From Desulfobacterales bacterium (GTDB lineage Bacteria > Desulfobacterota > Desulfobacteria > Desulfobacterales > JAUWMJ01), in the NCBI GenBank assembly GCA_030613225.1, contig JAUWMJ010000091.1, positions 1 through 8,881 of the forward strand: a DNA stretch of 8,881 nt. The letters run 5' to 3'. Below, one piece after another: positions 1-8,567 of the stretch (position 1 is the stretch's first letter; the number at the start of each line of letters is the position of its first letter). The position numbers and the translations under genes are program-made. Below the pieces are notes generated by a model that worked only from the letters and a program-made list of their open reading frames with translations, ran no database searches and had not been told where the DNA came from.

Positions 1-329
1 AGGCCACATCCACCGGCCGTACCAAGGAAGGTGTCCCCCACGAAAATCGGAGCAGCCACTTTCGCCAGAGCGATGTCGCACTCCCCGATCATAGGTTTCC
101 GGGTTGCCTTTGTCTCCGCAGTAAAATTCTGCGCCGCCACAGCGCAGATGGCCCCGATTGACTCGGGTTTCTTCTTGATGACCGGGCAAATCCGATTGCA
201 CCAGTTTTCATAATGGCTCACATTAACGACCTCCGCATCCCAAACAGCACAGCATATGCCGAATTTTTCGTGGAGGTCTTTTACAAAGTTGTTCCATTCC
301 TTTTCACTTAACAGGTCCGTTAATGTCAT
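1..329 (-). CDS. PocR ligand-binding-domain protein (partial, C-terminus off the left edge)
   Basis: The first 109 residues are present, starting at an ATG at 329-327 with an AAGGAG ribosome site about 8 nt upstream. The protein matches my recollection of the PocR sensory domain, the ligand-binding module named after the propanediol regulator PocR. Diagnostic stretches are NRICPVIKKKPESIGAICA (45-63), the KPMIGECD block (78-85), PIFVGDTFLGTAGGCG (94-109), and conserved cysteines at 48, 62, 84 and 108. Nothing precedes the domain, so this is either a stand-alone PocR-domain protein or one with an output domain (HTH, histidine kinase or GGDEF) beyond the edge. No signal peptide is seen, so it should be cytoplasmic. 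The next gene rightwards, lysC, is on the same strand about 450 bp upstream, and an operon is unlikely. The domain call is firm; the full protein's function cannot be judged from this fragment. Confidence 0.82.
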   Translation of the reverse strand, partial: MTLTDLLSEKEWNNFVKDLHEKFGICCAVWDAEVVNVSHYENWCNRICPVIKKKPESIGAICAVAAQNFTAETKATRKPMIGECDIALAKVAAPIFVGDTFLGTAGGCG

Positions 330-2324: not shown

Positions 2325-4001
2325 TTATAACCGGCTAACGTGTTTTACCTTTTTAACTCGATTACTTATTTCAAGGTAGCAGTTAAAGGCCTTCATCGGC
2401 TCATCAAAGGAATCACGAAAATAGCCCTGGACCCTTCTTAATGAAAATTTTCCCCCTTTTAAAGCATAATATAGCTTGTTACCCAGGATATAACCCAGCT
2501 GTGTGCTGAATATTCGAGTGACAGCGGATTTACTGTTATATTGGAGAAAAAACTTATTGATAAATTCCGTTGCATCAGAAGTTTTTCTCTGAAGGTAAAA
2601 ATGCTGCAAAATGTACCGGGCGACCTGTAAGATTTCCTGATCGGTATGTTTAAGTTCACCGCGCTTTACCTGACCTAAAAACATCCTGATGGAATTTTCT
2701 GAATGTGACTTTCGCTTTTCATTTATAAATTTACTGCCGAAAAATCCCAGACATTCGGTGATTACATTCCAATAAAAACAATCGAAAGCACTACCAGCTT
2801 TTTTTAAAGGTCCCCTGAGCACGGCATTTAAAAAATGAGTTGCTTCCTCGGCAGCCATGTTAATATTAGAGTTTGCCAGGTAGATAAGATACGCATTCTC
2901 ACTTGAAACCTCGTATTCCAGGAGGAATCCTTCTTCTTTTTTTATCTTACTTCGGATGAGTCGAAGCTGGCCCTTGAACTCGGAAGTATTATGAACGAAC
3001 TCCATAAAATTCAGGTTGTTCGGATAATAAATAGTCAATTTTTCCAGGGCATCCGGAGGGAAATCCAGATTGAGGATTTTAGCTAGGTTGGTAACCATTT
3101 CATACACCATTTCTCCCCTGTCTTCAAAAGCATCATCTTCCCAATCCTGATGCACTGGAAAATATGCGTCTTTGGAATATTCAAGCCAGTTTAAATAGGA
3201 CTGGATTTTATTCGCCGGCATCGTATTCATAACGCAGTATTTGTTGTCATTGATTTTTAGAACATCCGATTCTTCCAGCTTCCGGCTGCACAGCTTCCAG
3301 TAAAGGTTTTCAGCGTTCTGGAAAATAATAAGGGTCTTTGCGGACTCGTCCAACAGTTTTAGCAACTGCTCAACATTTTTTGGAAGATGATTGGGGGCGA
3401 TGTGATAATCGCCATCAACAATGTAAATCAGCTTGCCTGGATTCTTAATCAAAGTCTTAGCGATAATACGGGCCGAGTATTGGTCACGCTTTCTTAATCT
3501 TTTAATCCCCTTTTCATCATCAATTTCGGTATTAATACCCAGTATGGAAATTTGATTATCCCTGCAAAAAGAAATAATAGGGCTCCAGTTACCCCAATGA
3601 AATGGCCACTTTTTGGCATAATCGATTCTTTCCAGAAACATTTTTTCAGATAATTCTCCGGCCATGAACCGATCGACATATTTTTGATCACCTCCATGAA
3701 ACATCTCCAGGCACAGGATAATATCCCTTTTACCCTTAATTTCCCTGAGGATGCGCAGCACGGAATGTTGAGATTGTTTTAGCGTGTGATAGTCGCCATG
3801 GTAGACCAGATCAGCAGCCAGGACCTTTTGAATCAGTTCTGTTTTATTCGAAATTTCCTCATACGATTTCAAATAGCGTAAATACTCTTTTTCGTAAATT
3901 TTAATTCCAGGGTTATAACCTGAACTCTCACGAACCAAATTGACATTCCGGCGATAATTTATTTTTTGAATTCGGATAAGCTGGTCTCTTAGATTTGTCA
4001 C
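2325..4001 (-). CDS. ChaN/TIKI-superfamily protein with long uncharacterised C-terminal region
   Basis: The protein has 558 aa. Residues about 50-235 resemble the ChaN haem-binding / TIKI-EreA superfamily: GDYHTLKQSQ (69-78, in place of the usual GE.H motif), EMFHGGDQKYVDRFMAGEL (99-117), WGNWSPII (136-143) and a second GDYHIAP (197-203) near the end of the fold. ChaN proteins are usually surface lipoproteins of about 280 aa. This one has no signal peptide or lipobox, so it is probably cytoplasmic. Residues 240-558 are mostly helical-looking and I do not recognise them. The start is a GTG; the GGAGG ribosome site about 10 nt upstream (CCGGAGGTAGAG) supports it. It lies on the same strand downstream of the sigma-54 activator, separated by a 107-nt hairpin, and upstream of lysC, separated by element A. 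The function is unknown; haem binding or hydrolase activity is only suggested by superfamily membership. Confidence 0.75.
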   Translation of the reverse strand: MTNLRDQLIRIQKINYRRNVNLVRESSGYNPGIKIYEKEYLRYLKSYEEISNKTELIQKVLAADLVYHGDYHTLKQSQHSVLRILREIKGKRDIILCLEMFHGGDQKYVDRFMAGELSEKMFLERIDYAKKWPFHWGNWSPIISFCRDNQISILGINTEIDDEKGIKRLRKRDQYSARIIAKTLIKNPGKLIYIVDGDYHIAPNHLPKNVEQLLKLLDESAKTLIIFQNAENLYWKLCSRKLEESDVLKINDNKYCVMNTMPANKIQSYLNWLEYSKDAYFPVHQDWEDDAFEDRGEMVYEMVTNLAKILNLDFPPDALEKLTIYYPNNLNFMEFVHNTSEFKGQLRLIRSKIKKEEGFLLEYEVSSENAYLIYLANSNINMAAEEATHFLNAVLRGPLKKAGSAFDCFYWNVITECLGFFGSKFINEKRKSHSENSIRMFLGQVKRGELKHTDQEILQVARYILQHFYLQRKTSDATEFINKFFLQYNSKSAVTRIFSTQLGYILGNKLYYALKGGKFSLRRVQGYFRDSFDEPMKAFNCYLEISNRVKKVKHVSRL

Positions 4002-4053
4002 CCGTGCTCTACCTCCGGCTCTCTACAGTCAAAATGCGGTACAATAAATTGAT

Positions 4054-4059
4054 ATTATA
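4054..4059 (-). promoter_or_regulatory. Possible -10 hexamer for the ChaN-like gene
   Basis: On the minus strand this reads TATAAT in an AT-rich stretch about 50 nt upstream of the GTG start. No good -35 hexamer lies at the right distance, so this is a weak call. Confidence 0.25.
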
Positions 4060-4141
4060 TTATTAAATTGGGCAATTATGATAGACTACTGGTACTCGTT
4101 CACGCCCGTTCGAAACATAAAGGTTGCACAATCTGTGTCCT

Positions 4142-4248
4142 GTAAGCGTCCACAGGTGCTGCAGGTGTGCGTGATCAGGGCGACCAGCTATAGTCTGCTA
4201 TGCTGGTTGCCCTGATCACGCGCAGATGCGGTGCCTGTGAACGCTTAC
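4142..4248. repeat. 107-nt long-stem palindromic element
   Basis: Two 47-nt arms (4142-4188 and 4202-4248) are reverse complements with about 8 mismatches, around a 13-nt loop. Its end, CCTGTGAACGCTTAC (4234-4248), is identical over 15 nt to the right end of element B (6105-6119), which ties the hairpin to the same repeat family. It begins 13 nt after the stop codon of the sigma-54 activator. In RNA it would be a very stable stem that could stabilise the upstream mRNA or hinder read-through into the ChaN-like gene. No U-run follows it, so it is not a standard intrinsic terminator. Confidence 0.88.
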
Positions 4249-4261
4249 GAATACTGTAATG

Positions 4262-5635
4262 TTACCTAAGGTGTATTCCATGTTTCTTAATGCGCTTCCA
4301 TACGGTTATCCGGCTGACACCTAAAATCTTGGCAGCTTTAGTCTGATTCCCGTCAGCCTGTTGAAGCGCATTAAGAAGCGCTTCTTTTTCAGACAGTCCA
4401 ACCGTGACTGTACTGTTGTGTTCTACCTTTTTTAAAGGTTTGGTATCCAGAGGATTGAAGCTTGTGATTTTTTCCGGCAGATGTTCAGGCCCGATACTTT
4501 TTCCCCTTGCCAGGACAAAAGCATACTCTACACTGTTTCTCAATTCCCTGATATTCCCGGGCCAGCGGTATGCCACCATTAATCGCATGGCTTCCGGTGT
4601 AAATCCTAAAATATTTTTCCCTGTCTTTTCGGCATGAAAACTGATAAAATGCTGAATAATCAACGTAATATCATCTTTGCGCCGGCGTAGCGGGGGGCAG
4701 GTTAAAGGAAAAACATTGATTCTGAAAAACAGGTCTTCCCTGAATGATCCTTCTTCGATCATTTTTTCAAGATTTTTATTTGTTGCTGTAATTATCCTGA
4801 CATCAACGGAAATGGATTTGTTGGCTCCTACCCGCTGAATCATTTTTTCTTCCAGAACCCTGAGCAGTTTAACCTGAACCGAAAGGGGAATATCTCCGAT
4901 TTCATCCAGGAAAATGGTTCCTTTGTGGGCGGCTTCAAACCTTCCTATCCTGTCACTGTCTGCACCGGTATAGGCACCCTTTACATGGCCGAATAATTCA
5001 CTTTCAAGAATATTTTCACTTAACGAGGCACAATCTAATTTAATAAAGGGTTTGGATGCCCTGTCCCCGGTTTCATGTAGTGCTTTGGCGACCATTTCCT
5101 TTCCGGTGCCGCTCTCCCCCAAAATCATTACCGGCGTATCGAGTGACGCCACGCTCTCTATATGTTCATAAAGGCTCTGCATCACCGGCGTTCTTCCGAT
5201 AATGCCATGAAAGCCGTCATCAATGTAATACATCCGTTTGATGGATGCCAGTTCATTTTTATAGTTGATGTTTTCAGATATGTCTTTCAGGGTCTCAACT
5301 GCACCAACAATTTCATTTTTCTCATTAAAAAGAACGGTTGCACTCTTAATAATCGGTATGGTCCTGTTATGGCTGTTGGTAATCACACATTTTTTTTCCC
5401 TGACAAGCCCCTCAGAAAAAAGTTCGCACCACTTTTTCCCTTTACCTTTCCCGACAAGTTTACATCCGGTGCAATTCAAAATCCGGCAGGATTGGCCTTT
5501 CAATTCTTCTTCAGTGTACCCTGTGATCAATTGGGCAGTCTGATTGGCTGCAATAAAATCCCCTTTGTCATCAACAATGATGATGCCGTCCTGGACAGAA
5601 TCAATGATAGGCCGCCATTGTTTTCCGATATCCAT
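4262..5635 (-). CDS. Sigma-54-dependent transcriptional activator (PAS - AAA+ - Fis HTH)
   Basis: A 457-aa bacterial enhancer-binding protein. Residues 5-125 form a PAS sensor (SVQDGIIIVDDKGDFIAAN, 13-31). The PAS carries an unusual set of cysteines at 50, 55, 58, 70 and 83, possibly binding metal or an Fe-S cluster or acting as redox thiols (inference). The AAA+ domain, about 145-375, has Walker A GESGTGKE (173-180), a sigma-54 contact loop GAYTGA (220-225, Tyr for the common Phe), Walker B GTIFLDEIGD (239-248) and FREDLFFRINVFPL (298-311) with the arginine fingers. The C-terminal Fis-type helix-turn-helix, about 425-455 (TKAAKILGVSRITVWKRIKK), binds enhancer DNA. All parts needed to activate sigma-54 polymerase are intact. 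There is no receiver domain, so the signal is sensed directly. ATG start with GAGGA closely upstream. It is divergent from the rhodanese gene, whose -24/-12 promoter and TTAACA operators make it the probable target. TTAACA sites lie next to its own start, so autoregulation is plausible. Confidence 0.96.
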   Translation of the reverse strand: MDIGKQWRPIIDSVQDGIIIVDDKGDFIAANQTAQLITGYTEEELKGQSCRILNCTGCKLVGKGKGKKWCELFSEGLVREKKCVITNSHNRTIPIIKSATVLFNEKNEIVGAVETLKDISENINYKNELASIKRMYYIDDGFHGIIGRTPVMQSLYEHIESVASLDTPVMILGESGTGKEMVAKALHETGDRASKPFIKLDCASLSENILESELFGHVKGAYTGADSDRIGRFEAAHKGTIFLDEIGDIPLSVQVKLLRVLEEKMIQRVGANKSISVDVRIITATNKNLEKMIEEGSFREDLFFRINVFPLTCPPLRRRKDDITLIIQHFISFHAEKTGKNILGFTPEAMRLMVAYRWPGNIRELRNSVEYAFVLARGKSIGPEHLPEKITSFNPLDTKPLKKVEHNSTVTVGLSEKEALLNALQQADGNQTKAAKILGVSRITVWKRIKKHGIHLR

Positions 5636-5651
5636 ATTGTCCTCGCAATTA

Positions 5652-5689
5652 TTAACACTGTTAACAATTAAGTTAACACATCATTAACA
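5652..5689. promoter_or_regulatory. Probable upstream activating sequence (TTAACA repeats)
   Basis: A perfect 13-bp palindrome, TTAACACTGTTAA (5652-5664), is followed by further TTAACA copies at 5673-5678 and 5684-5689. With the copy at 5661-5666 the spacings are 9, 12 and 11 bp, close to helical phasing. The cluster lies about 135-170 bp upstream of the predicted sigma-54 start, a normal enhancer distance, and next to the activator's own start codon. Binding by the neighbouring Fis-type activator is inferred, not shown. Another TTAACA is at 5866-5871. Confidence 0.6.
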
Positions 5690-5796
5690 CTCTTGCAATA
5701 AAAATAATTTATAAAAAACCGACAGAATAAGTATCCTGCTACAAATATCCTTTATATTTAATTAGTTACAATAATAGTTGGTAAATTTTTTTATAA

Positions 5797-5812
5797 TGGC
5801 ACGCTCATTGCT
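5797..5812 (+). promoter_or_regulatory. Sigma-54 (-24/-12) promoter of the rhodanese lipoprotein gene
   Basis: TGGCACGCTCATTGCT matches the TGGCAC-N5-TTGC consensus. The invariant GG (5798-5799) and GC (5810-5811) are exactly 10 bp apart. Transcription should start near 5823 and run right into the gene at 6140. The promoter follows an AT-rich stretch (about 5691-5796) that would help DNA looping from the upstream operators. The predicted leader is about 317 nt, of which about 240 nt is element B. Confidence 0.85.
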
Positions 5813-5880
5813 CTATATCGGTTAACGCTGAAATATATATGAATTGTGATATTCGTAAACATAACTTAACAATTAAAACT

Positions 5881-6120
5881 GGTAACCATTCACGGGTTCA
5901 GAGGTTGCTCTCGTTCCCATGCTGCTTCGCTGTGGGAACGTACATCCGGCGCTTAAGCGCCGGCATATGAGTAACCGATGACCAGAGACCGATTCCGCAT
6001 CAGAGATCATAAAGAGGGGCATCATTTCCGGTTCTTACACATCGGCAGTCGGCGTTGAGCGCTGGAATGAGTGGAAAGGCAACCCTGAACCGTTGAACCC
6101 TGAACCTGTGAACGCTTACT
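5881..6120. mobile_element. Element B: inverted second copy of element A, inside the rhodanese leader
   Basis: Matches the reverse complement of element A along its length. Imperfect 19-bp terminal inverted repeats lie at 5882-5900 and 6101-6119 (16 of 19 paired). It is flanked by a 7-bp direct repeat, TAAAACT (5874-5880 and 6120-6126). Internal hairpins include CGTTCCCA (5912-5919) with TGGGAACG (5933-5940), and the perfect palindrome CCGGCGCTTAAGCGCCGG (5946-5963). It lies between the sigma-54 promoter and the ribosome site of the rhodanese gene, and it ends about 10 nt before that site. The transcript must therefore carry a strongly folded leader. No coding content is seen. Confidence 0.78.
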
Positions 6121-6139
6121 AAAACTTAAAGGAGAATAA

Positions 6140-7264
6140 ATGAAAGCAAACAATGCAAAAACCTTGATCTTGGCCTTGTTGGCAGGTCTGGTACTGTTGA
6201 CAGGATGTACGGCAACAAAAACGGCAAAAACCGATGTAACTCCCGTCAAAGATACGTCATGGATGTTTCATGGCATCGTGGATGCCAAGTTTGTAAAAGC
6301 ACACATGGCTGTTCCCATGCCTGAAAACGTTATGATTATAGATGCAAGGCCTTACAAGGTAAAATACACGAAAGGTCATATCCCAGGGGCGGTAAGCATT
6401 CCATTTTCAGAATTTGATAAAAAGGCTAATCTTCTGCCAAAAGATAAAAATACCCTGTTAATTTATTATTGCGGCGGACTTAAATGCAAACTCAGCCACA
6501 AATCAGCTAAAAAGGCTGAAAAACTCGGGTATAAAAACATTAAAGTTTTTGCCAAGGGATATCCTGAATGGGTCAGCCGGAAAGGAAATTATGCCTCTGT
6601 AAGTGCTGAGTATGTGGCAAAACAGATTGCTGAAAACAATACCGTAATTGTTGACGCAAGACCCCAGAAAACTAAATTTAATAAAGGACATATCCCCACA
6701 GCCATCAATATTCCTTTTACTCAATTTGACGTCCTTAATGGGAAACTGCCAAGGGACCTTAACACCCCGATTACTTTCTATTGCGGTGGTCTCAAATGCA
6801 GATTAAGCCATAAATCAGCAACAAAAGCCCTTGAAATGGGATACACCAACGTTAAGGTGTTTGCCAAAGGATACCCTGAATGGAAAAAGACCTATGGTGA
6901 ATCCAATGAGACCATACAGGTCCAAGCCGGTGAGGTTGAAGGTTCAATTGATCTTGAACGATTCAAATCCATTATCGCAAATAATCCTGAATCCATCATG
7001 CTCATCGACGTAAGAGATGCAGATGAGTTTGCCAAAGGGTCTTTTAAAACAGCCGTTAATATACCCGTTGAAAACCTTGAGCCTAAAATCAAGGATCTTC
7101 CGGATGACAAGCCCATCGTTTTTGTATGTCCAACCGGTGCAAGGAGCGGAGAGGCTTATTACATGATAAAAGATGTAAGAGAATCCTTAAAAGACGTCTA
7201 TTATGTGGAAGCTGAAATTGATTTTAAAGGTGACGGAAACTATGAGATTAAGAAACTCAAATAA
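6140..7264 (+). CDS. Lipoprotein with three tandem rhodanese domains
   Basis: A 374-aa exported sulfurtransferase-like protein. A hydrophobic signal (7-20) ends in lipobox LTGC with Cys23; Thr at +2 suggests the outer membrane. Rhodanese domain 1 has DAR (68-70), GHIPGA (79-84) and active-loop Cys111. Domain 2 has DAR (172-174), GHIPTA (183-188) and Cys215. Domain 3 has DVRD (290-293) and Cys330 in CPTGARSG. Domains 1 and 2 are near duplicates, both with loop CGGLKC and a second cysteine (116, 220) followed by LSHKSA, while domain 3 has a different loop. The family carries sulfane sulfur as a persulfide on the loop cysteine; physiological substrates here are unknown. The start is set by AAAGGAG 5-6 nt before the ATG and by the signal peptide. 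Expression is probably sigma-54 dependent, controlled by the divergent PAS activator. Confidence 0.93.
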   Translation: MKANNAKTLILALLAGLVLLTGCTATKTAKTDVTPVKDTSWMFHGIVDAKFVKAHMAVPMPENVMIIDARPYKVKYTKGHIPGAVSIPFSEFDKKANLLPKDKNTLLIYYCGGLKCKLSHKSAKKAEKLGYKNIKVFAKGYPEWVSRKGNYASVSAEYVAKQIAENNTVIVDARPQKTKFNKGHIPTAINIPFTQFDVLNGKLPRDLNTPITFYCGGLKCRLSHKSATKALEMGYTNVKVFAKGYPEWKKTYGESNETIQVQAGEVEGSIDLERFKSIIANNPESIMLIDVRDADEFAKGSFKTAVNIPVENLEPKIKDLPDDKPIVFVCPTGARSGEAYYMIKDVRESLKDVYYVEAEIDFKGDGNYEIKKLK

Positions 7265-7267
7265 CCC

Positions 7268-7417
7268 ATTTGAGCCAATTTCAAAACGTCCCCTTTTGTC
7301 CGATATCTGCGTCAGGCTCAAATTTTAATCCTCGAAATACTACATATATTCCTGTGGTTAAAATTTTCGCCTTCCTTGATCTCGAACAAAATTGAACATT
7401 TTGAAACTGCCTCATTT
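7268..7417. repeat. Nested inverted-repeat element between the rhodanese and cytochrome-like genes
   Basis: Outer arms ATTTGAGCCAATTTCAAAA (7268-7286) and TTTTGAAACTGCCTCATTT (7399-7417) pair at 15 of 19 positions. Inside, AAATTTTAA (7320-7328) is the reverse complement of TTAAAATTT (7358-7366). GGCTCAAAT (7315-7323) can pair instead with ATTTGAGCC at 7268-7276, giving an alternative fold. It starts 3 bp after the rhodanese stop. It is unrelated in sequence to elements A and B. It could be a dispersed intergenic repeat or a structured 3' end; no clear intrinsic terminator is present. Confidence 0.6.
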
Positions 7418-7451
7418 CTATAAAAAATAAAAGAACACAAGGAGATATAAC

Positions 7452-7802
7452 ATGTTTAAAAAAAGTATCATTACCATCATGGTGTTTATCTTTACAATTG
7501 TATCCTTTTCAATGGCGTTTGCTTCCGAAGGACCTGACGGCAATAAAAGAAAAGGCAAATACACCTATCGAAAAGTATATAAAGCCTGCGCGGCAACTGG
7601 TGAGGTTGAATCCAAAACCCCTAAAATGAGCCCGGCGGATAAAACAATGAAACAATGGAAAGATATTTTTGAAAACAAAAAATTTGATGAATTCGGCTGC
7701 AAGGACAATTGGGCAGAACTTTCTGATAAAGATATTCGTGATATTTATTCATATTTCTATCATCACGCTGCAGATTCACCAACACCTGCGAAATGCCAAT
7801 AA
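7452..7802 (+). CDS. Small secreted cytochrome-c-like protein lacking the CxxCH haem motif
   Basis: A 116-aa protein with an evident Sec signal: KK, then a hydrophobic run, then a likely cut after AFA near residue 24. The mature part resembles small c-type cytochromes of sulfate reducers: GKYTYRKVYKAC (35-46), SPADKTMKQWKDIF (60-73), LSDKDIRDIYSYFYHHA (90-106) and a PAKC end (112-115). Where homologues usually carry CxxCH, this protein has CAATG (46-50), so covalent haem attachment in the normal way should be impossible. Its three cysteines are 46, 83 and 115. Family placement is from remembered patterns and is moderate. The ATG is preceded by AAGGAGATATAAC, a strong ribosome site. It is 187 bp downstream of the rhodanese gene on the same strand with the nested repeat between, so co-transcription is possible but unproven. 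No clear promoter of its own was found. Confidence 0.8.
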   Translation: MFKKSIITIMVFIFTIVSFSMAFASEGPDGNKRKGKYTYRKVYKACAATGEVESKTPKMSPADKTMKQWKDIFENKKFDEFGCKDNWAELSDKDIRDIYSYFYHHAADSPTPAKCQ

Positions 7803-7852
7803 ATGATGAAAAAGAGTGGCGTTTTTTTAACCCGCCCTTTTTGGGAAGTATG

Positions 7853-8065
7853 TTTGTAACTCAGGTTCAAAGTTCCATGGTTCACGGTTCAAGGTTAACT
7901 GATGAAAACTGCACGGTTTGGAGATATCGAGGGGTGGCATATTGCGCGCAACTGCTGCCGTTCATAGGTCCATCAACTATGTTGGGCAATATGAAAAATG
8001 CGACGACGCCACAGGCAAAACAACCCTGAACCCTGAACTGTGAACCTGACAACCTGAGTTACAAA
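7853..8065. mobile_element. TIR-bounded element carrying a collapsed gene remnant
   Basis: Perfect 15-bp inverted repeats, TTTGTAACTCAGGTT (7853-7867) and AACCTGAGTTACAAA (8051-8065), enclose about 180 bp. Just inside both ends are GGTTCA/TGAACC-type short repeats like those at the ends of elements A and B. The centre is different and holds a broken coding fragment (see the pseudogene entry). A possible 5-bp flanking repeat AGTAT (7847-7851, 8067-8071) is too short to rely on. It is probably an internally deleted member of a repeat-bounded element family; no transposase is present. Confidence 0.68.
7902..8043 (+). pseudogene. Probable remnant of an S23-type four-helix-bundle (23S intervening-sequence) protein gene
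   Basis: An ATG at 7902 opens a 21-codon frame containing RFGDIEGWHIAR, stopped by TAG at 7965-7967. This resembles the conserved start of S23/IVP four-helix-bundle proteins (F.DIEAWQ.AREL type). In another frame, 7972-8043 reads INYVGQYEKC...TTLNPEL, resembling the C-terminal part (YEKADE.G) and the repeat-encoded tail such proteins often have. The intact family is about 120 aa, so most of the middle appears deleted along with a frameshift. The similarity is from memory and short, so a chance match is possible. The repeat-bounded setting supports the reading. Confidence 0.42.
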
Positions 8066-8080
8066 TAGTATTAGATACAC

Positions 8081-8116
8081 AAAAAAAAGCAGGAAGTCCA
8101 TACAAAGTCTTCCTGC
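8081..8116 (-). terminator. Intrinsic terminator of the M23-bactofilin transcript
   Basis: Read on the minus strand, GCAGGAAG (8116-8109) pairs perfectly with CTTCCTGC (8096-8089) around a 12-nt loop and is followed directly by eight U (8088-8081). It lies about 35 nt beyond the bactofilin stop codon, the expected place. Confidence 0.93.
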
Positions 8117-8150
8117 CTACAAGTTCCGAATTTCTAAGATATGTTATTTC

Positions 8151-8567
8151 TCACTTAAGAAGTCCCGGTGGAGCAGAAGACACAAGTGGTGCAGGCAGTG
8201 AAAGAGAGTCCACTGGCTCCAGGAGAACCTGCCTGGAATTCATATGGCATCTACCATCAAAAATTACGCCGGGTGCCATTACGAATTTTGCAGTAGTAAC
8301 ATCCCCATTCACCTTTCCCTTTTCAGTGATTTCCAACCGGTCTTTTGCAGTGATATTACCTGTAAACTCCCCGGCAATTAACACATTATCCGCCACAATA
8401 TCTGCCGCCACCTTTCCCGCACTTCCAATAACCAAACTCCCTTCACATTGGATGTTTCCTTTTACGTTTCCATCGATACGGAGGCCTTCTTTGGAGGATA
8501 TTGTGCCTTCAAAATGCGCATGGTGTCCGATGATGGTGTCTATTCTTTCTATCTTTGCTTTCCCCAT
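8151..8567 (-). CDS. Bactofilin (polymer-forming cytoskeletal protein)
   Basis: A 138-aa protein of the bactofilin (DUF583) family. These self-assemble into filaments at the inner face of the membrane and position cell-wall enzymes. The beta-helical core, about residues 10-115, shows the regular glycine/valine ladder: IIGHHAHFEGTISSKEGLRI, then DGNVKGNI, GKVAADIVADNVLIAGEFTGNI and GKVNGDV. A short proline-rich tail (123-138) follows. Length is normal. The ATG is chosen because the core begins soon after; a GGAG lies about 12 nt upstream, a rather long spacing. It starts 32 bp after the M23 peptidase stop on the same strand and ends at a strong terminator. This reproduces the common M23-bactofilin pairing, in which the bactofilin localises the peptidoglycan hydrolase. 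Confidence 0.94.
   Translation of the reverse strand: MGKAKIERIDTIIGHHAHFEGTISSKEGLRIDGNVKGNIQCEGSLVIGSAGKVAADIVADNVLIAGEFTGNITAKDRLEITEKGKVNGDVTTAKFVMAPGVIFDGRCHMNSRQVLLEPVDSLSLPAPLVSSAPPGLLK

What the first reader, a model, noticed from the sequence alone, without database searches (positions are those of the whole stretch)
4262..7264. Candidate sulfur/redox response module: cysteine-rich PAS sigma-54 activator driving a triple-rhodanese lipoprotein
The sequence shows a complete local circuit: a one-component sigma-54 activator, operator-like TTAACA palindromes, a consensus -24/-12 promoter, and a divergent exported three-domain rhodanese. I know of no named system with this layout. The signal is unknown; reactive sulfur species or redox state would fit the PAS cysteines and the target.
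Basis: partly seen in the sequence, partly recalled or inferred. Interest (0 to 1): 0.7.

Follow-up and report, generated by a model that had tools for sequence, protein, structure and literature searches.

The report
Sulfur-respiration regulator with triple rhodanese
A cysteine-rich gene switch sits back to back with an exported three-domain sulfur-carrier protein and a former cytochrome, a trio kept together in many sulfate-reducing bacteria, usually as the front part of a gene set that looks built for respiring sulfur compounds and that is incomplete in this stretch of DNA.

Summary
The window encodes a PAS/sigma-54 activator (ACT, 4262-5635 -), TTAACA operators (5652-5689), an exact -24/-12 promoter (5797-5812) and a divergent three-rhodanese lipoprotein (RHO, 6140-7264 +). 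A third gene belongs: CYT (7452-7802 +), a former c-type cytochrome. In 57 of 80 related loci ACT lies upstream; a -24/-12 site is present in 51 of 51 close divergent gaps, window included (0.8 expected). The layout is real and selected. The lone-rhodanese circuit is only part of it: most relatives go on to an octaheme cytochrome of the tetrathionate-reductase family plus cytochrome b561, others carry a PhsABC-like molybdoenzyme. Here those genes are missing, with repeats at both joints (rearrangement or misassembly). Rhodanese loops 1 and 2 end in Cys where loop 3 has Arg; seven relatives have in-frame TGA (selenocysteine) there. The five PAS cysteines are invariant in 56 of 56. Best reading: a sulfane-sulfur- or redox-responsive switch for periplasmic sulfur-compound reduction, RHO handing persulfide sulfur to the reductase. 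Signal and chemistry are inferred. Precedents exist (DVU3142-Ohc regulon; triple-rhodanese lipoprotein in a Psr operon): a new variant of a known kind.

The parts
4262..5635 (-). ACT: one-component sigma-54 activator (PAS, AAA+, Fis-type HTH; 457 aa)
   Evidence: Pfam; best NCBIfam match PrdR 375 bits, cut-off 795; none of the 25 families shown reaches its cut-off
5387..5488 (-). Cysteine-rich segment of the PAS domain: C50, C55, C58, C70, C83
   Evidence: all five invariant in 56 of 56 aligned ACT proteins (56 of the 61 cluster members, the rest dropped by length or as remote paralogues)
4961..4978 (-). GAYTGA loop, residues 220-225 (sigma-54 contact loop; role recalled)
5652..5689 (.). Operator: five TTAACA/TGTTAA sites, 108-145 nt upstream of the -24 element and 17-54 nt upstream of the ACT start codon
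   Evidence: 49 of 51 gaps; TTAAYA-N5-TTAAY direct repeat in 30 of 51 (0.27 expected)
5797..5812 (+). -24/-12 promoter TGGCACGCTCATTGCT
   Evidence: 0 mismatches; 51 of 51 gaps with at most 2 mismatches
5881..6119 (.). 239-bp repeat element in the leader, with a 7-bp duplication TAAAACT at 5874-5880 and 6120-6126
   Evidence: absent from L001, where the two flanks overlap by 7 bp at 2507-2513; at least 44 matches in the genome of L001, none in four other genomes searched
6140..7264 (+). RHO: exported lipoprotein with three rhodanese domains (374 aa)
   Evidence: Pfam; the predicted model matches rhodanese folds in the PDB, with low TM-scores over the whole chain
6470..6487 (+). Loop 1, C111-GGLK-C116
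   Evidence: C111 in 80 of 80 aligned; residue 116 C 73, TGA 7
6782..6799 (+). Loop 2, C215-GGLK-C220
   Evidence: C215 in 81 of 81; residue 220 C 78, TGA 3
7127..7144 (+). Loop 3, C330-PTGA-R335, canonical
   Evidence: C330 in 81 of 81; R335 in 80 of 81
7452..7802 (+). CYT: small exported protein descended from a c-type cytochrome, heme motif lost, C46, C83 and C115 kept (116 aa)
   Evidence: three Cys in 72 of 72; CxxCH present in 13, absent in 59 (window included); heme-keeping relative L062 hits PF13442
4097..4251 (.). Left joint: palindromic repeat between ACT and an unrelated ChaN-like gene
7853..8054 (.). Right joint: repeat at whose end homology to L001 stops; L001 goes on to the octaheme cytochrome gene

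Best explanation
ACT-RHO-CYT is the regulatory and sulfur-carrier part of a respiratory module of sulfate reducers that reduces sulfane-sulfur compounds (polysulfide, tetrathionate or thiosulfate) in the periplasm. Mechanism: (1) the cysteines of the ACT PAS domain sense the compound or the redox state that goes with it (inferred); (2) ACT binds the TTAACA array beside its own start codon and activates sigma-54 polymerase at -24/-12 (sites shown, action inferred); (3) RHO takes up sulfane sulfur as persulfide on its loop cysteines, the Cys/Sec pairs of domains 1 and 2 allowing redox release and domain 3 acting as an ordinary rhodanese, and hands it to the reductase (inferred); (4) CYT, once an electron carrier, now works through its cysteines or as a structural subunit (inferred, weak); (5) an octaheme cytochrome with cytochrome b561, or a PhsABC-like enzyme, does the reduction (adjacency shown in relatives; these genes are absent from the window).
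For: ACT upstream of and divergent from RHO/CYT in 57 of 80 loci. Promoter and operator conserved. An octaheme-cytochrome gene cluster, whose sampled members L063, L056 and L010 pass the TIGR04315 cut-off, is in 63 of 81 loci and cytochrome b561 in 53 of 81. A PhsA-like cluster is in 12 of 81; a relative of ACT is divergent from such an operon in L200, L202, L205 and L207. Other relatives of ACT have DsrE (L199), TusA (L203), a pyridine-nucleotide disulfide reductase with a rhodanese domain (L204, L208) or a metallo-beta-lactamase-fold protein with rhodanese domains (L175) within about 4 kb on the divergent side. Invariant Cys in PAS, RHO loops and CYT. In-frame TGA at the RHO loops arose or was lost in at least 3 changes on the tree, each of the 10 sites followed by a similar hairpin. 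In Desulfurivibrio dismutans the Psr operon, strongly upregulated in sulfur disproportionation, encodes a secreted lipoprotein with three rhodanese domains (PMC12142623, section 16).
Against: No substrate, signal or regulation was tested. Shewanella OTR also reduces nitrite and hydroxylamine (PMC4484225 passages). In the ACT-centred sample RHO is near ACT in 11 of 40 regions and the octaheme gene in 29 of 40, so RHO is an optional member there. The window shows no reductase. Twelve RHO loci with more than 5 kb upstream have no ACT there, seven of them of the PhsA-like type. Other ACT relatives have divergent neighbours with no obvious sulfur link: a phosphotransferase (L157), class III cytochrome and Fe-S genes (L173), an alginate-export-type protein (L176), and for several none was identified. 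Activators outside this Cys-PAS family were not sampled as a control.
Confidence: 0.6

Rival explanations
1. Selenium or tellurium oxyanion handling: the operon reduces selenite or tellurite, as the Geobacter ext cluster (rhodanese, porin, cytochromes, Sec-containing cytochrome) is thought to do.
For: A DUF3373 porin gene occurs in 20 of the 121 loci searched, some of them the same contigs fetched twice; RHO and octaheme relatives carry in-frame TGA; the ext cluster has a rhodanese, a porin and a putative Sec cytochrome (PMC5877670 passages).
Against: RHO scores 27.7 bits against the ExtH model with cut-off 200; the porins of L056 and L031 hit no NCBIfam model at E 0.001; 74 of 81 RHO show no in-frame TGA.
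Confidence: 0.12
2. Oxygen, NO or thiol-redox defence: the PAS cysteines hold an iron-sulfur cluster as in staphylococcal NreB, and the operon serves detoxification or repair during oxygen or nitrosative stress.
For: NreB has four Cys in a PAS domain that bind a 4Fe-4S cluster (PMC4601167 passages); a cytochrome bd subunit I cluster lies downstream on the same strand in 15 of 80 loci (one member, L010, checked in Pfam); OTR can reduce nitrite and hydroxylamine.
Against: Rhodanese and PhsA-like partners are sulfur proteins; neighbours of some ACT relatives include TusA, DsrE and rhodanese fusions. A redox cue and a sulfur target can both be true.
Confidence: 0.2
3. In this genome the trio is a decaying remnant: the reductase was lost by recombination between repeats, and the insertion in the leader damages expression.
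For: Both joints lie at repeats, L001 keeps the octaheme and cytochrome b genes, a 239-bp element sits in the leader and the assumed leader folds strongly (z -4.8).
Against: The three reading frames, operator, promoter and catalytic residues are intact; the joints may be misassembly; the reductase genes may lie elsewhere (no whole genome is held).
Confidence: 0.25

Closest known systems
DVU3142-Ohc sigma-54 regulon of Desulfovibrio (PMC4641369, passages)
   Same: Activator gene divergent from an octaheme-cytochrome operon with a sigma-54 promoter and activator sites; in D. alaskensis the operon is reduced to one gene that keeps promoter and site, as the window keeps its promoter without the reductase.
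   Different: The ohcBAC operon has an iron-sulfur protein and no rhodanese in the passages read; these are predictions of that paper; whether ACT is an orthologue of DVU3142 was not tested.
Psr operon with a triple-rhodanese lipoprotein, Desulfurivibrio dismutans RS06465 (PMC12142623, section 16 and passages)
   Same: Secreted lipoprotein with three rhodanese domains encoded with a periplasmic sulfur reductase; operon upregulated on sulfur.
   Different: Sequence not compared here; no activator is mentioned in the section read; the window has no reductase beside it.
Sud of Wolinella succinogenes (recalled; one search gave a search listing only)
   Same: Periplasmic rhodanese that carries polysulfide sulfur to polysulfide reductase.
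   Different: Sud is recalled as single-domain, without the CX4C/U loops.
FisR (PMC11211675, passages)
   Same: Regulator that responds to sulfane sulfur by multiple sulfur links; sigma-54-dependent by the title of a cited paper not held.
   Different: Controls sulfide-oxidising genes; its sensor region was not compared with the Cys-rich PAS here.
TsoB and related selenoprotein rhodaneses (PMC13188914 table, passages)
   Same: Rhodanese listed with the motif UxxxxU; best NCBIfam match of RHO (123 bits).
   Different: TsoB is a rhodanese/DsbD fusion, cut-off 805; RHO keeps Cys at the first position and has Cys or Sec at the last.

Membership tests
Sigma-54 enhancer-binding proteins | Sigma-54 interaction AAA+ domain with GAFTGA-type loop and Fis-type HTH | tested here: met
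   PF00158 239 bits and HTH_8; GAYTGA
Sigma-54 enhancer-binding proteins | -24/-12 promoter at the target | tested here: met
   0 mismatches; 51 of 51 gaps
Rhodanese superfamily | PF00581 domains with catalytic Cys | tested here: met
   three stretches; C111, C215, C330 invariant where aligned
Canonical thiosulfate sulfurtransferase | six-residue loop starting with Cys and ending with Arg (feature recalled) | tested here: not met
   loops 1 and 2 end in Cys or TGA-coded residue in all aligned relatives; only loop 3 has Arg
TsoB | NCBIfam NF045694 cut-off 805 bits | tested here: not met
   123.3 bits
Geobacter ExtH | NCBIfam NF040901 cut-off 200 bits | tested here: not met
   27.7 bits
DVU3142-Ohc regulon | octaheme cytochrome gene under the activator | tested here: not met
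   none in the window; present in relatives, as TIGR04315 in the members sampled; identity with OhcA not tested
DVU3142-Ohc regulon | activator orthologous to DVU3142 | not tested
   named Desulfovibrio sequences were not compared
Psr/Phs-associated sulfur carriers (Sud-like role) | encoded beside a periplasmic polysulfide or thiosulfate reductase | tested here: inconclusive
   not in the window; PhsA-like gene in 12 of 81 loci; L062 and L064 score 572 and 527 bits against PhsA, cut-off 694
NreB-type iron-sulfur PAS sensors | PAS cysteines that bind a 4Fe-4S cluster | not testable with these tools
   five invariant Cys; cluster binding needs protein
c-type cytochromes (CYT) | CxxCH heme motif | tested here: not met
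   absent in the window and in 59 of 72 in all; present in 13 relatives

The most novel reading that the evidence does not exclude
A large family of cysteine-rich PAS sigma-54 activators is the sulfane-sulfur switch of anaerobic sulfate reducers, and it drives a respiratory unit in which the terminal reductase is exchangeable (octaheme cytochrome or molybdoenzyme) while a rhodanese with redox-active CX4C/CX4U loops and a cytochrome turned thiol protein form the recurring sulfur-delivery part.
Probability: 0.3. Interest if true: 0.75.

Novelty: new variant of a known kind. Interest (0 to 1): 0.55.

Why it matters
How sulfate reducers sense and reduce polysulfide, thiosulfate or tetrathionate outside the cell is, to my knowledge, poorly known. 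A conserved switch, promoter, sulfur carrier and exchangeable reductase give a concrete set of genes to test in cultured strains whose genomes hold the locus (Desulfocicer vacuolatum L031 and Desulfosarcina alkanivorans L056 with all five genes; Desulfospira joergensenii L015 without a detected CYT). The Cys/Sec interchange in rhodanese loops points to a redox use of the rhodanese fold.

Tried and rejected
Reading the window as a complete rhodanese-only circuit was dropped once relatives showed the longer operon. Ext (Geobacter) membership was rejected on model scores. A plasmid origin found no support: no near DNA match and, in 59 records with a weak protein match to RHO, none covering 80% of it. 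The bactofilin search in five relatives' genomes gave only 28-34% matches and could not place the right flank. Loss of the reductase from this genome could not be settled: no whole genome is held. tRNA-Sec is over the cut-off in 15 of 16 genomes, including Cys-only ones, so it permits Sec but does not discriminate; G007 (L052) has no hit over the cut-off, and 5 of 14 named control genomes have one. The hairpin comparison after TGA used no composition control. The structure models were used only to confirm rhodanese and PAS folds (RHO pTM 0.56, PAS pTM 0.69); no coordinates were read. The lipobox count (28 of 81) is unreliable because start codons were set mechanically. The sigma-70 promoter and terminator scan of 4001-8200 gave numbers near chance.
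Full report
What is there. The window comes from a Desulfobacula-like sulfate reducer: RHO is 95% identical to L001 (Desulfobacteraceae MAG) and to L002 (Desulfobacula MAG), and the tree puts the three together. ACT (4262-5635 -) has PAS, sigma-54 AAA+ and Fis-type HTH domains; RHO (6140-7264 +) has three rhodanese domains. The promoter at 5797 matches TGGCACGNNNNTTGC exactly; the other 18 matches found at up to 3 mismatches all have 3. A third gene, CYT (7452-7802 +), has no Pfam or NCBIfam match at E 0.001 but has 1103 relatives among proteins, several of the 120 listed named cytochrome c family protein by their sources.

Conservation. A scan of one genome per species with a RHO alignment confirmed 129 stretches, of which the best 80 were kept; the set is therefore biased to close relatives. 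ACT lies upstream and divergent in 57 of the 80 (50 within 1.2 kb, 7 farther). Of the other 23, nine have less than 1.3 kb before RHO/CYT, two have 2.6-3.3 kb, and twelve have more than 5 kb and no ACT there: L039, L043, L047, L049, L068 and the PhsA-like loci L064, L070, L073, L075, L076, L077, L079. In the 51 close gaps, window included, a -24/-12 site with at most 2 mismatches is found in 51 (0.77 expected from shuffles) and with at most 1 in 42 (0.08 expected). TTAACA/TGTTAA occurs in 49 of 51 gaps, 155 sites against 18 expected, with a control hexamer pair at chance (15 against 16), and the TTAAYA-N5-TTAAY direct repeat in 30 of 51 (0.27 expected). The array lies next to the ACT start codon, so ACT probably also controls itself (inference).

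The larger operon. Clustering of the open frames in the 81 loci (window included) gives RHO in 81, CYT in 72, an octaheme cytochrome in 63, ACT in 59, cytochrome b561 in 53, a 4Fe-4S protein in 39 and a thioredoxin-like protein in 29. The clusters were built by BLAST linkage and only sampled members were checked: octaheme L063, L056 and L010 pass TIGR04315; cytochrome b L063 and L010 hit PF01292. A common order in the Desulfobacula and Desulfotignum loci is thioredoxin-ACT || RHO-CYT-octaheme-cytb, with a cytochrome bd subunit I gene downstream on the same strand in 15 of 80 loci; in many more distant loci CYT precedes RHO; in the Desulfovibrio-type loci and L062 the order is CYT-PhsA-like-FeS-cytb-RHO. 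The PhsA-like cluster is in 12 of 81 loci. The PhsA-like proteins of L062 and L064 score 572 and 527 bits against PhsA, below its cut-off of 694.

Test from the activator side. In 96 genomes drawn from the order of G015, 68 have a match to ACT at E 1e-100 or better. The octaheme gene is present in 29 of 40, cytochrome b in 25, CYT in 23 and RHO in 11; a -24/-12 site with at most 2 mismatches lies within 450 bp in 20 of the 29 with the octaheme gene and in 3 of the 11 without. So the octaheme unit, rather than RHO, is the most frequent partner in that sample. The five-cysteine pattern is found in 39 of the 40; the exception, L161, is an overlong frame whose PAS part was not read. In 61 genomes of the order of G017, 31 match at E 1e-110 or better. 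Of 14 regions looked at, 6 have RHO; two of these are the contigs of L034 and L035, and four (L200, L202, L205, L207) show an ACT relative divergent from CYT-PhsA-like-...-RHO. In these four the TTAACA count is 0 or 1 and the promoter match has 1 to 3 mismatches, so that operator is not conserved there.

Other company of ACT relatives. Within about 4 kb on the divergent side: TusA, FlpD and an FAD/4Fe-4S protein (L203), DsrE (L199), a disulfide reductase with a rhodanese domain (L204, L208, not the nearest gene), a metallo-beta-lactamase-fold protein with two rhodanese stretches (L175, not the nearest frame), FAD/4Fe-4S proteins (L171, L172). Not fitting or unclear: a phosphotransferase (L157), class III cytochrome with Fe-S protein (L173), an alginate-export-type protein (L176), and no identified neighbour in L140, L146, L155, L161, L163 and L174. 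Among 20 lower-scoring relatives, 12 fit the strict five-cysteine pattern and 8 do not, though those keep several of the cysteines. No control set of activators outside this family was sampled, so the sulfur enrichment is an impression, not a test.

Chemistry. In RHO the first loop cysteine of each domain is invariant where aligned. The sixth loop residue is Arg in domain 3 (80 of 81), but Cys or in-frame TGA in domain 1 (73 C, 7 TGA of 80; L078 is cut) and domain 2 (78 C, 3 TGA of 81). All 10 TGA sites are followed by a similar small hairpin; the mean fold energy of 48 nt is -14.9 kcal/mol against -9.3 (sd 3.6) for 128 Cys sites, without a control for composition, and 6 of the 7 genomes concerned have a tRNA-Sec over the cut-off. 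The Sec label needs 4 changes on the RHO tree of 80 rows, at least 3 forced by well-supported branches; the bootstrap had not settled. CYT keeps C46, C83 and C115 in 72 of 72; the heme motif CxxCH is present in 13 and absent in 59. All 11 loci with the PhsA-like gene and no octaheme gene keep it, as do L067 (both kinds) and L065; 58 of the 59 loci with the octaheme gene alone, and the window, lack it.

What the window lacks. Compared with L001, the window is colinear from the ACT stop codon (4264) to 8054, except for 239 bp at 5881-6119 flanked by a 7-bp duplication, so a repeat element inserted between promoter and RHO. The repeat has at least 44 matches in the genome of L001 and none in four other relatives' genomes. 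At 8054, the edge of another repeat, homology ends; L001 goes on to the octaheme gene. On the left the thioredoxin-like gene of L001 is replaced by a ChaN-like gene (2325-4001 -) behind a palindromic repeat. Rearrangement between repeats and misassembly at repeats cannot be told apart here.

Literature. Ten searches of an open-access library were made. I saw no paper on this activator-rhodanese-CYT layout in their listings; subscription journals are mostly missing. Closest: the DVU3142-Ohc regulon (PMC4641369, passages); a Psr operon with a secreted three-rhodanese lipoprotein, upregulated in sulfur disproportionation (PMC12142623, section 16 read in full); OTR of Shewanella, which reduces tetrathionate, nitrite and hydroxylamine (PMC4484225, passages); rhodanese genes beside SirA-like octahemes in Dethiobacter (PMC10376724, passages); a PAS kinase NreB reported to sense H2S in Bacillus licheniformis (PMC9918477, passages). 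Passages of PMC12998232, PMC8318568 and PMC7602056 added nothing specific to this layout.

Verdict. The best reading is a regulated periplasmic sulfur-reduction module whose front part is seen here. The layout and residues are shown; signal, binding, transfer and substrate are inferred.

Noticed in passing
window 5881-6119, 2056-2300, 4142-4248: Dispersed repeats, the two long ones inverted copies of each other, with related ends (GTAAnCnTTCACnGG, read by eye); one copy has a 7-bp target duplication. At least 44 matches to the first in the genome of L001.
   Followed up: partly
window 7272-7412: About 140 bp between RHO and CYT that L001 shares and L002 lacks, possibly another insertion.
   Followed up: no
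window 2325-4001 (-): 558-aa protein with a ChaN/Tiki-type domain at residues 56-160 and an unmatched remainder; 92% identical copy in the genome of L001, no match in four other relatives' genomes.
   Followed up: partly
L152 10373-12037, L150 15469-17133, L060 14069-15733: Octaheme cytochrome genes with in-frame TGA after SINNF, where L063 and L031 have Cys.
   Followed up: partly
L046 and L048: RHO nearly identical in records filed under Lentisphaeria and Desulfobacteraceae; perhaps a contaminating contig in the former.
   Followed up: no
window 3-329 (-): Start of a protein with a PocR sensory domain, cut by the window end.
   Followed up: no
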